Source of the DNA: Flavobacterium sp. KACC 22763
GTDB taxonomy: Bacteria; Bacteroidota; Bacteroidia; Flavobacteriales; Flavobacteriaceae
NCBI RefSeq assembly: GCF_028736155.1
Contig: NZ_CP117879.1
Location: 3,038,001 to 3,102,000 of the forward strand
Direction: 5' to 3'
Length of the DNA stretch: 64,000 bases
The notes beneath the pieces were generated by a model, which had not been told where the DNA came from, ran no database searches, and worked only from the letters and a program-made list of their open reading frames with translations. This document shows, piece after piece, positions 5,335-47,271 of this stretch; the first letter of the stretch is position 1, and each line of letters begins with the position of its first letter. Made by a program: the position numbers and the translations under genes.

Positions 5335-5342
5335 TATCTTTG
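5335..5342 (+). promoter_or_regulatory. -7 box of the trp operon promoter
   Basis: TATCTTTG matches the Bacteroidota TAnnTTTG -7 box and lies 18 bp before the leader peptide ATG. No clear -33 TTG is seen at the expected spacing. Confidence 0.65.
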
Positions 5343-5360
5343 TCACATCAAAATAAAGAA

Positions 5361-5417
5361 ATGAGAACAATTTTAAACAATACTTGGTGGTGGAGCAATT
5401 TACGTCAGACGTCGTGA
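5361..5417 (+). CDS. trp operon leader peptide (three consecutive Trp codons)
   Basis: An 18-codon reading frame too short for routine gene finders: M-R-T-I-L-N-N-T-W-W-W-S-N-L-R-Q-T-S then TGA. Three consecutive TGG codons at 5385-5393 are very unlikely by chance directly upstream of trpE. The frame sits between a -7 box (5335-5342) and an intrinsic terminator (5458-5490), the classic arrangement for ribosome-mediated attenuation. The stop codon at 5415-5417 lies inside the strand that would form the antiterminator. The peptide itself probably has no function beyond sensing charged tRNA-Trp. Confidence 0.92.
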   Translation: MRTILNNTWWWSNLRQTS

Positions 5418-5490
5418 ACGAAGCTTCCTATGGTATTGTAAGAAATATAAAAATATAAAGGGCTTGTCATCACGACAAGCCCTTTTTTTT
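5411..5490 (+). promoter_or_regulatory. trp attenuator (terminator and competing antiterminator)
   Basis: Terminator: GGGCTTGTC (5460-5468) pairs with GACAAGCCC (5474-5482), loop of 5, followed by eight T. Antiterminator: 5411-5417 pairs perfectly with 5470-5476, continued by 5418-5419 with 5466-5467 and 5421-5424 with 5462-5465. That gives 13 pairs with two small bulges, mutually exclusive with the terminator. A ribosome stalled at the Trp codons leaves 5411-5424 free (operon on). A ribosome reaching the stop codon covers it (operon off). Pairing is seen in the sequence; the mechanism is inferred by analogy with known attenuators. Confidence 0.88.
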
Positions 5491-7501: not shown

Positions 7502-7567
7502 CAGTCTCAGTCACAGTTTTCAGCAAAAAAACTTAGTAACTCAGAACCTTAGCAACTTAGAACCTTA
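7502..7567. repeat. CAGTCTCAG and CTTAG-type intergenic repeats before trpG
   Basis: The 5' part (7502-7517, CAGTCTCAGTCACAGT) recurs exactly at 8667-8682. The 3' part holds 8-bp-periodic CTTAG units, including an 18-bp word at 7541-7558 that recurs at 8217-8234 and, with one change, at 8705-8722. trpG starts 7 bp after this block. Confidence 0.7.
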
Positions 7568-8663: not shown

Positions 8664-8722
8664 TTCAGTCTCAGTCACAGTAAAAAACTTAGAATCTCAG
8701 CATCTTAGAACCTTAGCAACTT
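8664..8722. repeat. CAGTCTCAG and CTTAG-type repeats before trpD
   Basis: Same two-part structure as the block before trpG: CAGTCTCAGTCACAGT (8667-8682), then four 8-bp CTTAG units ending 8 bp before the trpD ATG. Confidence 0.7.
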
Positions 8723-20097: not shown

Positions 20098-20205
20098 TAG
20101 TCACAGTTCTCAGTGGCAGTTTTCAGTTTATAAACTTTGCGTTTTTTTGCGCTCTCTGCGTTAAAAAACTTAGAATCTTAGTATCTCAGAACCTTAGCAT
20201 CTTTA
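20098..20205. repeat. Composite intergenic repeats downstream of yaaA
   Basis: A CACAGTTCTCAGTGGCAGTTTTCAG block, a TTTGCG/CTCTGCG block and a CTTAG block (20170-20205) follow one another. The CTTAG block ends 8 bp from the yaaA stop on the opposite strand. Confidence 0.65.
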
Positions 20206-21062: not shown

Positions 21063-21284
21063 TCTGCCACGAATTGCACGAATTTCTACAAATTATTCTT
21101 TTGCGCAAATTGTTATATTTTTTTGCCACAGATTAAAATGATTTACACAGATTTTCTTAATCTATTACTATTTTTTTTCTGCCACGAATTGCACAAATTT
21201 TCACTAATTAAAAATCTTTTTTAATCCTTTTAATCTGTGGCAGAAAAAATAAATTCGTGAAAATTCGTGAAATTCGTGGCAGCC
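21063..21284. repeat. Nested GCCACGAATT / GCCACAGATT inverted repeats
   Basis: The 460-bp region between yaaA and the next gene holds no gene but several repeat arms. CTGCCACGAATTGCAC occurs at 21063 and 21180. The inner pair TGCCACAGATTAAAA (21124) and TTTTAATCTGTGGCAG (21228) is followed by the outer complement GTGAAATTCGTGGCAG (21267-21282). The arms are ordered so that one hairpin lies inside another. The same family occurs at 10596 and 47197. Confidence 0.8.
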
Positions 21285-28633: not shown

Positions 28634-29058
28634 AAGTTTCTAAGTTACTAAGGTTCTGAGATTCAAAGTTTTTCTTTTTAAGCTTCTGAGGTACTGAGTT
28701 GCTAAGTTTCTAAGTTTTTTTTCTTAGAATCTTAGAGTCTTAGCAACTTATTCTCTCGAATTTAATTGATGATTAAAACTCTTTTTTTTGCCTCTAAGTT
28801 TTTAAGAAATCTAAGTTTCAAAGCTTTTTAAACTTAGAATCTCAGAATCTTAGCCACTTAGCGACTTTTTAATTTATACTTCAAAAGTATGCTGGTTTTT
28901 AGTCTTTTAAAATTAAATGATACTGAGTTGTTGATTTTTGATGATGAATTGTTTTTTTTTAAGTTGATAAGGTTCTGAGGGACTATCCAGATAGTTATCG
29001 GGACTAAGTTTTTATGGCAAAAACCTTAGCAACTTAGAACCTTAGTATCTTAGCATCT
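28634..29058. repeat. Cluster of three CTAAG/CTTAG inverted repeats
   Basis: The 451-bp region between the DUF2141 and TonB-receptor genes holds no gene. It contains three consecutive imperfect hairpins whose left arms are built of 8-bp CTAAG units and right arms of the complementary CTTAG units: about 28674-28750, 28793-28865 and 28962-29058. The third contains an internal CTATCCAGATAG palindrome (28982-28995 region). The same units occur at eight or more other intergenic sites in the window. Confidence 0.8.
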
Positions 29059-35688: not shown

Positions 35689-36231
35689 ATGGTTTATAAA
35701 TTTAGAGTTATTCTAGACGCCGAAGAAGATATTTTTAGAGACATTGCTATTCTTGAGGAAGATACACTTGAGGATTTACACAATGCAATCTTCAATGCTT
35801 TTGGCTTTGACGGATCAGAAGTGGCTTCATTTTATACTTGTGATGATACATGGAATCAAGAAGATGAAATTCCGCTTTTTGATACAGGAGATGTTCCTGG
35901 CGAAATGAGAACCATGAACGATTATCCGTTATCTAGTATTTTAGACAAAGAAAATACAAAGATTATCTACGTTTACGATTTCATCAGCATGTGGACTTTC
36001 TTAGTCGAATTGGCTGCTATCGAAGATGAAACTGTTGGAGCAACTTACCCTGAAACTCTATTCTCTCACGGTGAAATGCCAGATGAAGCTCACGAAAAAA
36101 ACTTCGAAGCTGATGACATGCACGACGATATCTACGGAGAATTTGAAGACGACCTAGACGAAGACGATCTTGATATGTTCGAAGGTGATGACAGCTTTGA
36201 AGATTATGGATTTGAGGAGAATTGGAACTAA
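35689..36231 (+). CDS. Plasmid pRiA4b ORF-3-like protein
   Basis: A 180-residue protein. The N-terminal two thirds match the pRiA4b ORF-3 family fold (YKFRVILDAEEDIFRDIAI, LEDLHNAIFNAFGFD, and KIIYVYDFISMWTFLVEL). The last 45 residues are very acidic (Asp/Glu-rich, with DLDEDDLDMFEGDD). Some relatives ride on IS elements, but no transposase is near and the gene looks chromosomal with its own promoter. Function unknown. The acidic tail may mimic nucleic acid or bind basic proteins. Confidence 0.85.
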   Translation: MVYKFRVILDAEEDIFRDIAILEEDTLEDLHNAIFNAFGFDGSEVASFYTCDDTWNQEDEIPLFDTGDVPGEMRTMNDYPLSSILDKENTKIIYVYDFISMWTFLVELAAIEDETVGATYPETLFSHGEMPDEAHEKNFEADDMHDDIYGEFEDDLDEDDLDMFEGDDSFEDYGFEENWN

Positions 36232-36237
36232 CGTCAA

Positions 36238-36723
36238 GTTGCTAAGACTCTAAGACTCTAAGATTCTGAGTTTTTAACATTTGAACGAATTTTCTTATTT
36301 TTGAATTTATTTTAAAAAATAAGTTAATGAGTCATTTTAGAAAGATTTTGGTCTGGCAGAAATCAATTTCCTTAGTTACAAAAGTTTATAAAGTAACAAG
36401 AACTTTTCCAAAAGAAGAAACTTTTGGATTAACTTCGCAAATACGCCGAAGTTCAGTATCAATTCCAAGTAACATTGCAGAAGGATCTGGAAGAGAAAGT
36501 AATAAAGATTTTTTACGGTTTTTATATATTTCTCTAGGCTCCTTATTTGAAATGCAGACCCAACTTGAAATTGCAAAAAATATAATTTATATAAACGAAG
36601 AAGAATTTAACCTTTTATATGAGGACAGTAGAGAGATCGAAAGAATGTTAGCGTCGTTAATCAAAAAATTAAAAGACACTATCTAAAAAACTTAGTATCT
36701 TAGAAACTTAGAATCTCAGCAAC
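36238..36723. repeat. 33-bp inverted repeats enclosing the S23-type gene
   Basis: The left arm 36238-36270 and the right arm 36691-36723 are reverse complements at 27 of 33 positions without gaps. They begin 6 bp after one gene's stop and end 8 bp before the next gene's start, so the enclosed 486-bp unit carries only the four-helix-bundle gene. The arms belong to the CTTAG repeat family. Confidence 0.78.
36327..36686 (+). CDS. Four-helix-bundle protein (23S rRNA intervening-sequence type)
   Basis: A 119-residue helical protein of the S23/IVP family: FRKILVWQKSISLVTKVYK, FPKEETFGLTSQIRRSSVSI (SQIRRSSVSIPSNIAEG is the signature) and FLRFLYISLGSLFEMQTQLE. First known from open reading frames inside intervening sequences of 23S rRNA. 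Here it lies free in the chromosome but between 33-bp inverted repeats, an arrangement reminiscent of those elements. A TATTTTTG -7 box lies at 36296-36303. A related structure binds nucleic acid-like partners in some species, but function is not established. Confidence 0.93.
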   Translation: MSHFRKILVWQKSISLVTKVYKVTRTFPKEETFGLTSQIRRSSVSIPSNIAEGSGRESNKDFLRFLYISLGSLFEMQTQLEIAKNIIYINEEEFNLLYEDSREIERMLASLIKKLKDTI

Positions 36724-36731
36724 TCAAAAAA

Positions 36732-37790
36732 ATGATCAACTTATTCAACACCCACATCGACACGCTGTCAATACACCGCGTAGGAAACAAAAGCCGTAAC
36801 GAAGCGATTTTTTTATCGGAGCAGCCGTTTAATTTAAATGACGAGATTGTTCCTTTGATAAAAGAATTCTTTTTTAAGCCTTTTAGAGAAAAAGAAGAAA
36901 ACTATTATCAGTTTGCACACGAAGTGGACTTGGACTACAACGACATGTTTAAATATGCAACTGAGATTTTTGCTAATCCGTCAAATGTTCATGAGGTTTC
37001 TAAAAACATCACAAAACATTTATATGAGCAGTCAAATCACCCGCACATTAAAAATGGAGAGGTTTACGTAACCTATTTAACAAACCTAAGTATTGACAAC
37101 AATGTTGTTGATGCAATTGGAATTTTTAAAAGTGAGTTACAAGCAGACTTTTTACAGTTTGAAGAAAATAACAGCAACCTTGAGATGATTTTACAACAGG
37201 GAATCAACCTGAATAAATTGGATAAAGGATGTTTGATTTTCAACTACAAAAAAGAAGAAGGATATAAAATCCTTACTGTAGACAGCAACCGTTATGATGC
37301 GCGTTACTGGTTAGAGCACTTTTTATCTGTTGACGCTTTTGAAGATGAAAATTTCATCACTAAAAAATATTTGAAATTCTGTCAAAACTTCGCAAAAGAC
37401 GTGGTTTTGCCAGCCGAAGACAAGAAAGAGGAAGTAATGTTTATGAACCGATCTGTGAATTATTTCGCTAAAAATGATCAGTTTGAAGAACAAAATTTCT
37501 TGAATGAAGTACTAGACAATCCTGATTTGATTCCTGAATTTAAAAACTATAAAGTTGATAAAGGAGAAAAATACAGCATCGAAGATGTAACCTCATTCCC
37601 TATTGCCAACGCAGCAGTTTCTGACGCTAGAAAATCGATTAAAAACGTAATTAATTTGGATACTCACATTCAGATTAAAATGGATTTCATCAATCCTGAA
37701 AGTGCAGAAAAATTTGTTGAAAAAGGCTGGGATGAAGAAAAACAAATGTATTACTACTTAGTTTACTTCAACAAAGAAGAGAAAAGCTAA
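36732..37790 (+). CDS. Nucleoid-associated protein, NdpA family
   Basis: A 352-residue cytosolic protein of the 37-kDa nucleoid-associated (NdpA/YejK) family: an opening HIDTLSIHRVGNKSRNEAI, then the conserved segment NVVDAIGIFKSELQADFLQF, and KGCLIFNYKKEEGYKILTVDSNRYDARYW (split) in the middle. E. coli YejK binds DNA and topoisomerase IV. It starts 9 bp after the CTTAG right arm of the S23 element and is followed by a bidirectional terminator. Confidence 0.88.
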   Translation: MINLFNTHIDTLSIHRVGNKSRNEAIFLSEQPFNLNDEIVPLIKEFFFKPFREKEENYYQFAHEVDLDYNDMFKYATEIFANPSNVHEVSKNITKHLYEQSNHPHIKNGEVYVTYLTNLSIDNNVVDAIGIFKSELQADFLQFEENNSNLEMILQQGINLNKLDKGCLIFNYKKEEGYKILTVDSNRYDARYWLEHFLSVDAFEDENFITKKYLKFCQNFAKDVVLPAEDKKEEVMFMNRSVNYFAKNDQFEEQNFLNEVLDNPDLIPEFKNYKVDKGEKYSIEDVTSFPIANAAVSDARKSIKNVINLDTHIQIKMDFINPESAEKFVEKGWDEEKQMYYYLVYFNKEEKS

Positions 37791-47152: not shown

Positions 47153-47196
47153 CTGTAGGTTCAAAGTTGCAAAGGCTCAAAGTAACAAAGTTTTTA

Positions 47197-47271
47197 TAGC
47201 CACGAATTACACTAATTTCCACTAATTTTTATTTAAATATAATTCGTGAAAATTAGTGTAATTCGTGGCTA
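47197..47271. repeat. 22-bp perfect inverted repeat of the GCCACGAATT family
   Basis: Arms TAGCCACGAATTACACTAAT.. (47197-47218) and its exact complement (47250-47271) flank a 31-bp AT-rich interior. The same family is found at 10596-10660 and 21063-21284. It lies between two convergent genes. Confidence 0.9.

What the first reader, a model, noticed from the sequence alone, without database searches (positions are those of the whole stretch)
36238..36723. S23-type gene enclosed in 33-bp inverted repeats: a free intervening-sequence-like element
The four-helix-bundle protein belongs to the family first found inside 23S rRNA intervening sequences, which are stem-loops carrying an S23 gene. Here the gene sits between inverted repeats matching at 27 of 33 positions, with ends only 6 and 8 bp from neighbouring genes. 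That is the same architecture outside an rRNA gene. The arms belong to the CTTAG repeat family seen elsewhere as short hairpins, raising the idea that S23-like proteins act on, or spread with, these palindromes.
Basis: partly seen in the sequence, partly recalled or inferred. Interest (0 to 1): 0.72.

Follow-up and report, generated by a model that had tools for sequence, protein, structure and literature searches.

The report
S23 genes boxed by five-unit arrays
A small bacterial gene of unknown function sits between mirror-image arrays that often hold five 7- or 8-base units, the same layout recurs around many of its relatives in distant bacteria with arrays that change along with the protein, and this points to an unrecognised family of small, apparently mobile elements whose five-subunit ring protein may grip one unit per subunit.

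Summary
In detail: an S23 (PF05635) gene lies between 39-bp inverted arms matching at 33 of 39 positions. Of the genome's 8 S23 genes, 7 have strong inverted arms, of differing families. Among 240 S23 genes from several phyla, AG recurs four or more times at a fixed 7- or 8-base spacing in both arms in 86, against 0 of 366 control genes; the two arms share spacing in 85 of 86. AG-array length peaks at five in both arms. Xanthomonas S23p is a toroidal homopentamer (passage of PMC4990558). Arms change with the protein rather than the site, and S23 with arms is present in some genomes and absent in others at two compared sites. I read this as a selfish cassette whose pentamer binds one unit per subunit on its own arms. 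Association is shown; binding and movement are inferred. 154 of 240 genes miss the strict rule. My ten literature searches showed no report of it.

The parts
36237..36275 (+). left arm: five AG-centred 8-bp units (AG at 36237, 36245, 36253, 36261, 36269), AGNNNCTR-like
   Evidence: 5 units at spacing 8, AG on the coding strand
36327..36686 (+). S23 / four-helix-bundle protein gene, 119 aa
   Evidence: PF05635 147.3 bits (cut-off 33.8), TIGR02436 147.5 bits (cut-off 24)
36686..36724 (-). right arm: inverted copy of the left arm, AG units on the minus strand (five-unit core 36691-36724; the chain counts six with one more AG at 36683)
35689..36231 (+). upstream neighbour, PRiA4_ORF3-like protein; left border of the site compared across 30 genomes
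36732..37790 (+). downstream neighbour, 37-kDa nucleoid-associated protein family (NA37); right border of the site
7532..7565 (-). S23-less dispersed array of the same family, five AG units at spacing 8
8688..8721 (-). S23-less dispersed array, five units
20169..20202 (-). S23-less dispersed array, five units
28635..29058 (.). cluster of five S23-less arrays (28635-28668 +, 28681-28714 +, 28723-28756 -, 28833-28866 -, 29025-29058 -), five units each
47157..47190 (+). S23-less array of the related AGNNNCAA type, five units at spacing 8

Best explanation
The locus is one copy of a small element: array of about five 7- or 8-bp units, S23 gene, inverted copy of the array. The S23 protein is a ring of five identical subunits; I propose that each subunit grips one AG-centred unit, so that one ring wraps one single-stranded arm of about 35-40 nt (in RNA, or in DNA extruded as a hairpin). 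Binding would mark the element's ends, hold its hairpin open or protect it, and serve both its own expression and its spread to intergenic sites. Protein and arms therefore change together, and S23-less hairpins of the same unit type are dependent or decayed copies. SHOWN by counts here: the two-armed layout, its orientation, equal spacing of both arms, the peak at five AG units, arms that follow the protein more than the site, presence in some and absence in other genomes at two sites. TAKEN from a paper for a relative: the pentamer. INFERRED: that S23 binds the arms, one unit per subunit, a single-stranded target, and how the element moves.
For: Inverted arms at score >=34 in 107 of 240 S23 genes against 14 of 1420 mismatched up/down pairs; best period 7 (64) or 8 (33) in 97 of those 107, null about 10% each. 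AG chains of >=4 at a fixed spacing: spacing 7 in 86 (up) and 66 (down) of 240, spacing 8 in 37 and 38, other spacings from 4 to 13 0-5, spacing 14 = 2x7 26 and 11; wrong-strand CT chains upstream 22 of 240. AG chains >=4 in both arms: 86 of 240 S23 genes against 0 of 366 control ORFs of the same loci (Fisher 4e-40); single arms 121 (up) and 103 (down) of 240 against 10 and 10 of 366; at 60% non-redundancy both arms in 29 of 105; equal spacing 85 of 86. Chain length peaks at five: up 4:33, 5:60, 6:24; down 4:23, 5:63, 6:15; shuffled upstream flanks 10.7, 3, 1; joint 5/5 the largest cell, 29. Homopentamer: stated in PMC4990558 (passage); PDB 2gsc and 2rld have five chains each. Coevolution: the period label changes 15 times on a tree of 106 proteins, shuffled mean 28.8, minimum 23 of 300; S23 pairs at different sites with 80-90% identity keep arm similarity in 92% of 12 pairs, 70-80% in 63% of 38, random pairs 2.7%; same-site pairs at 40-70% identity only 3-27%. 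NA37 site: all 9 genomes with an AG-type S23 have five AG in the 5' arm although the units differ (3' arms 4-6); other genomes there have S23-less 5/5 hairpins (L301, L304) or none. Upstream of ettA the own genome has S23 with arms; three relatives with 98-99% identical EttA have 47-63 bp there (L407-L409). New material: 21 plasmid S23 loci, upstream AG chain >=4 in 15, inverted arms above every one of 60 shuffles in 13.
Against: No binding was tested. 154 of 240 genes fail the strict two-arm AG rule and 94 of 240 have no inverted arms even at score 30. Five is a mode, not a law: AG chains of up to 27 units exist, in the non-redundant set five against four units is only 40 to 24 (p=0.03), and 43 genes whose arms lack AG chains show no clear five. 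The nine genomes at the NA37 site are related by descent, not independent. In the plasmid set only 5 of 21 have >=4 units in both arms and at least three loci have an upstream array alone. In genomes where such arrays are rare elsewhere, only 3 of the 13 S23 genes I held reach arm score 34. Dispersed copies are not always cognate: G006 and G015 have 211 and 295 CTNAG triples but CAAAG-type arms at the related S23 gene. 'Different site' means no protein-level match in 0.7-1.4 kb of flank, which can miss shared sites. No target-site duplication or clean boundary was found. S23 has no known catalytic domain (recalled), so how it would move is open.
Confidence: 0.55

Rival explanations
1. Autoregulation only: the arrays are cis-acting binding sites by which S23 controls its own mRNA (TRAP-like), and the unit is not mobile; shared arms reflect descent with occasional ordinary gene transfer.
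For: Upstream arrays are more frequent than downstream ones in plasmid loci (15 against 7 of 21) and three loci have an upstream array of exactly five and no downstream arm. Where a five-unit upstream array is found it lies close before the start codon (median 32 nt).
Against: It does not explain the inverted downstream arm with equal spacing in 85 of 86, S23-less hairpins at the same site, the dispersal of the arrays in some genomes, or S23 with arms at a site where near relatives have a short gap.
Confidence: 0.25
2. The arms are ends of a non-autonomous transposon moved by an unrelated host transposase; S23 is a passenger.
For: Inverted ends, intergenic location, S23-less relatives (MITE-like), no known catalytic domain in S23 (recalled). 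A passage of PMC2700814 notes IS elements at a fixed distance from paired octanucleotide sites in Geobacter.
Against: A passenger would not be expected to track the arm unit: arms follow the S23 clade, with the same period rule in several phyla. One 718-bp interval between two arms in the own genome holds a 217-aa ORF that is not S23; whether that is cargo was not tested.
Confidence: 0.12
3. Chance or neighbourhood: S23 genes merely sit where intergenic short tandem repeats accumulate.
For: The own genome is rich in hairpin repeats: 79 in 464 kb. In the named-genome loci 16 of 499 control ORFs (8 of 101 small ones) reach the arm score of 38 that 20 of 80 S23 genes reach (these controls were not cleared of second S23 genes).
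Against: With S23 flanks cleared, 0 of 366 control ORFs have both arms by the AG rule. In the own genome 4 of 345 control ORFs reach score 38 and 7 of 8 S23 genes do. Nine other S23-bearing genomes have one AG5 array in 720 kb of samples, yet S23 genes L191, L193 and L129 there have arms at 40-45.
Confidence: 0.02

Closest known systems
23S rRNA intervening sequences (IVS) with an S23p ORF
   Same: S23-family ORF inside a stem made of inverted arms, 428 nt (first given as 444) in Coxiella; a passage of PMC4990558 reports two or three tandem heptamers GACAGAT plus one degenerate copy upstream of the S23p ORF, i.e. AG every 7 nt
   Different: here between protein genes, no 23S gene found in the fetched flanks; RNase III excision untested; the passages and Discussion that I saw treat the heptamers as strain variation, not as a binding array
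REP/REPIN sequences with RAYT transposases (recalled)
   Same: gene with flanking palindromes of its own family, dispersed gene-less copies
   Different: S23 is not a transposase by Pfam; arms are several direct units, not one imperfect palindrome
Heptamer arrays: TAACTGA repeats (PMC4679880), GGGAATC repeats (PMC4692102), paired sites on opposite strands in Geobacter including five tandem MTYCTGA heptamers (PMC2700814), cyanobacterial STRR (recalled)
   Same: 7/8-mer arrays, mostly intergenic, some in inverted pairs; TAACTGA read on the other strand is TCAGTTA, AG every 7
   Different: no link to S23 in what I saw: the words S23 and four helix do not occur in PMC4679880 and PMC4692102, S23 not in PMC2700814
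TRAP (trp RNA-binding attenuation protein; recalled)
   Same: ring protein with AG-containing repeats, one per subunit
   Different: 11 subunits and shorter spacing; unrelated fold; analogy only
Avd of diversity-generating retroelements
   Same: related four-helix-bundle family (bAvd 33.1 bits, below its cut-off of 40; DivGenRetAVD 23.6 bits, cut-off 80)
   Different: below both cut-offs; retroelement genes near S23 were not looked for

Membership tests
PF05635 / TIGR02436 (S23, four-helix-bundle protein) | profile score over the curated cut-off | tested here: met
   147.3 bits against 33.8; 147.5 against 24
23S rRNA intervening sequence (IVS) | S23 ORF inside a stem of inverted arms | tested here: met
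23S rRNA intervening sequence (IVS) | insertion in a helix of 23S rRNA | tested here: not met
   lies between two protein genes; the six 23S genes of the genome match the model end to end at 2883 bases each
23S rRNA intervening sequence (IVS) | excision from the transcript by RNase III | not testable with these tools
   needs RNA work
REP-RAYT system | gene encodes a RAYT (Y1) transposase | tested here: not met
   Pfam gives S23 and bAvd only
Transposon / MITE | terminal inverted repeats | tested here: met
Transposon / MITE | target-site duplication at an occupied site against an empty site | tested here: inconclusive
   occupied and short-gap sites seen, gaps too diverged by eye to show a duplication; no alignment of the junctions was made
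Diversity-generating retroelement Avd | Avd profile over cut-off | tested here: not met
   NF033474 23.6 bits, cut-off 80
Homopentameric ring of the S23 family | five subunits in a ring | not tested
   by homology only: PDB 2gsc, 2rld with five chains each; PMC4990558 says homopentamer, toroidal, for the Xanthomonas protein

The most novel reading that the evidence does not exclude
S23 genes define a widespread class of mobile elements ('five-unit elements'): a homopentameric ring recognises five tandem units in each of two inverted arms, one unit per subunit; every S23 lineage has its own unit. IVS elements in 23S rRNA, cyanobacterial heptamer repeats, TAACTGA arrays and the Geobacter paired sites would be members or remnants of this one class.
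Probability: 0.45. Interest if true: 0.93.

Novelty: new variant of a known kind. Interest (0 to 1): 0.85.

Why it matters
S23 proteins are described as having no known function (PMC4990558, passage), and bacterial heptamer arrays have been reported several times without a known binding protein. The counts here tie the two together and give a direct, cheap test (does the ring bind five units?). If right, it would explain how IVS elements and many intergenic palindromes arise and would describe a new way for a protein to read tandem repeats.

Tried and rejected
Rejected: CTTAG arms as a general S23 mark. Rejected: S23 loci in my set as true 23S IVS (the two blast hits, L122 and L124, fall at query positions 5-379, which are flank: the fetched locus is 5883 bases with the 2883-base gene inside). 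Rejected: a known RNA family (Rfam: a Bacteroid-trp leader and two tRNAs in the window). One 718-bp interval between two arms as other cargo: 217-aa ORF, not followed up. Prediction that dispersed AG5 arrays mark S23-bearing genomes: not supported; outside the own genome (60 per Mb) and G036 (50 per Mb) nine other S23-bearing samples of 80 kb had 0 or 1 each, one in 720 kb together, and two S23-less genomes one in 400 kb. Of 13 S23 genes that I held from seven of those nine genomes only 3 reach arm score 34. Five-unit rule in families without AG: not seen. Rows dropped: S23 ORFs under 25 bits with my own profile (of the own genome L007, 22.0 bits), 4 of 244 genes for short flanks; the tree used 106 of 240 (arm score >=30, 95-150 aa, clear period). 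The 80 genus loci were picked by hand from the listed places, some listed places being passed over; 11 of 32 plasmid hits were not fetched. Literature searches that showed nothing on the link, read as capped listings.

Full report
What is there. The S23 gene at 36327-36686 (+) is a member of PF05635/TIGR02436. It lies between a PRiA4_ORF3-like gene and a NA37 gene, inside two inverted arms of 39 bp that match at 33 positions and exceed all 300 shuffles. Each arm is a tandem array with AG every 8 bp, five times in the left arm; the right arm counts six on the other strand, five of them in the family pattern. The full element folds as RNA with the arms paired, z -6.1.

The rest of the genome. 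It has eight PF05635 genes. In seven of eight the 300-bp flanks form an inverted repeat of score 38 or more; 4 of 345 control ORFs do. The arm sequences differ: CTNAGNNN here, CAGT-type units at L002 and L003, GTTTATT-type units at L004 and L005, others at L006-L008 (unit names by eye). L004 and L005 are 81% identical proteins with like arms (arm score 28) at different sites; the arms of L004 itself are weak, 6 of 300 shuffles reach them.

Generality. They gave 244 S23 genes, 240 used. Inverted arms at score 34 or more: 107 of 240, mismatched flank pairs 14 of 1420; best period 7 in 64 and 8 in 33 of the 107. Control ORFs in the named-genome loci reach 38 in 16 of 499 against 20 of 80 S23 genes (controls not cleared of second S23 genes). 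AG chains of four or more at one fixed spacing stand out only at 7 and 8, and at 14 as twice 7. With a stricter rule, and controls kept clear of S23 flanks, both arms hold four or more AG units in 86 of 240 S23 genes and in 0 of 366 control ORFs of the same loci; single arms 121 and 103 of 240 against 10 and 10 of 366; spacing is equal in 85 of 86. 154 of 240 do not meet the two-arm rule.

Five units. The longest AG chain with spacing 7 or 8 peaks at five in the upstream flank (4:33, 5:60, 6:24, 7:8) and again in the downstream flank (4:23, 5:63, 6:15, 7:5); shuffled upstream flanks give 10.7, 3 and 1 for 4, 5 and 6. In the 96 genes of the named-genome set alone, five beats four 58 to 24. At 60% non-redundancy with the stricter rule it is 40 to 24, p=0.03. 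Longer arrays occur, and the 43 genes with arms lacking AG chains show no clear five. S23p of Xanthomonas campestris is described as a toroidal homopentamer in the introduction of PMC4990558 (passage; the 2006 structure paper itself was not read); the two PDB relatives have five chains each. One unit per subunit is my inference.

Arms follow the protein. On a tree of 106 S23 proteins the period label changes 15 times, against a mean of 28.8 and a minimum of 23 in 300 shuffles; several clades also share unit sequence. Among pairs at different sites, arm similarity is kept at 80-90% protein identity in 92% of 12 pairs and at 70-80% in 63% of 38; at 60-70% in 14% of 120; random pairs 2.7%. Pairs at the same site whose proteins are 40-70% identical show 3-27%. 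Site identity was judged from short flanks, and the short alignment leaves many forks unresolved.

Sites. Between the PRiA4 and NA37 genes I compared 30 genomes. Nine have an AG-type S23 with five AG in the 5' arm and four to six in the 3' arm, although units are CTRAG in some and CAAAG in others. L294 has a different S23 clade with its own arms, L303 a decayed copy of that kind, L290 a short remnant. Without S23: L301 and L304 (period 7, 5/5), L305 (period 8, 6/5) and L299 (5' array only); six have weaker heptad arrays (L285, L287, L289, L291-L293); L284 and L288 have a hairpin of another kind; six show no inverted arms (L295, L296, L298, L300, L302, L306; L295 and L298 keep a short one-sided array). 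Upstream of ettA, one of the 30 fetched loci, the own genome, has this S23 with arms (searched with the L004 protein only); three relatives with 98-99% identical EttA have gaps of 47-63 bp. G003, not among the 30, has an S23 match beside ettA too (coordinates), and 10 of the 30 lack the upstream reference gene. No target duplication was read.

New material. In the plasmid collection 32 records matched; I fetched 21, 18 of them cyanobacterial. Upstream AG chains of four or more: 15 of 21; downstream: 7; both: 5; inverted arms above all 60 shuffles: 13. Units include GGGAACA in Nostoc. This is weaker for the two-armed rule than the main set and stronger for the upstream array.

Dispersal. In the own genome AG5 arrays run at 60 per Mb, and none of the 29 found in 464 kb lies inside an ORF of my simple caller. 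CTNAG arrays within 300 bp of each other face as they do around S23 in 14 cases, the other way round in none, and are parallel in 7 (the regions were chosen from the list). Nine other S23-bearing genomes sampled have almost none, so dispersal is a lineage matter; of the 13 S23 genes I held from those genomes 3 reach arm score 34. Ten genomes with a >=60% relative of this S23 have more CTNAG copies than 31 without (p=3.7e-5), with exceptions both ways.

Literature, with what I saw. PMC4990558 (passages and the Discussion): Coxiella IVS, inverted 28-bp stem, two or three GACAGAT heptamers before the S23p ORF. PMC4679880 (abstract, Introduction, one discussion section, passages): TAACTGA arrays, the majority in one genome just before start codons; no binding protein identified; [quoted passage not shown] PMC2700814 (passages): sites mostly paired, on opposite strands, in Geobacter, one class with five tandem heptamers. 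PMC4692102 (passages): GGGAATC heptamers, sometimes in inverted pairs. PMC5524665 (passages): four-helix-bundle genes appear in a gene table only. TRAP, STRR and RAYT are recalled. The ten searches named under Tried and rejected, seen as capped listings, showed no paper that connects S23 genes to such arrays; most subscription papers are outside the library.

Mechanism and verdict. The layout, orientation, equal spacing, five-unit peak and coevolution make a physical tie between protein and arms the best reading. A ring of five reading five units on a single strand is the simplest geometry, by analogy with TRAP. Whether the target is RNA or DNA, and how the cassette moves, is open. I rate the association as near certain, the binding model about 0.55.

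Noticed in passing
L386, L390, L396: On cyanobacterial plasmids S23 genes with arrays sit inside CRISPR-cas loci (cas6-S23-cas4 twice, cas10-S23-cmr3 once), so such genes may be element insertions rather than CRISPR parts.
   Followed up: partly
window 28635-29058: Five five-unit arrays packed in one intergenic stretch of about 450 bp in both orientations, without S23.
   Followed up: partly
window 7532-7565, 8688-8721; L150, L152, L162, L166: Of 10 solitary own-genome arrays between codirectional genes 8 have AG on the antisense strand, and 6 of these 8 end 6-10 bp before the next start codon, like the reported TAACTGA arrays.
   Followed up: partly
window 21178-21282, 47196-47271: Hairpins built on a period of about 10 (CACGAATT-like units), a different palindrome family.
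   Followed up: no
window 5341-5468: Bacteroid-trp leader RNA by Rfam.
   Followed up: no
L290, L303: Truncated and decayed S23 copies at the NA37 site, suggesting turnover of the gene.
   Followed up: partly
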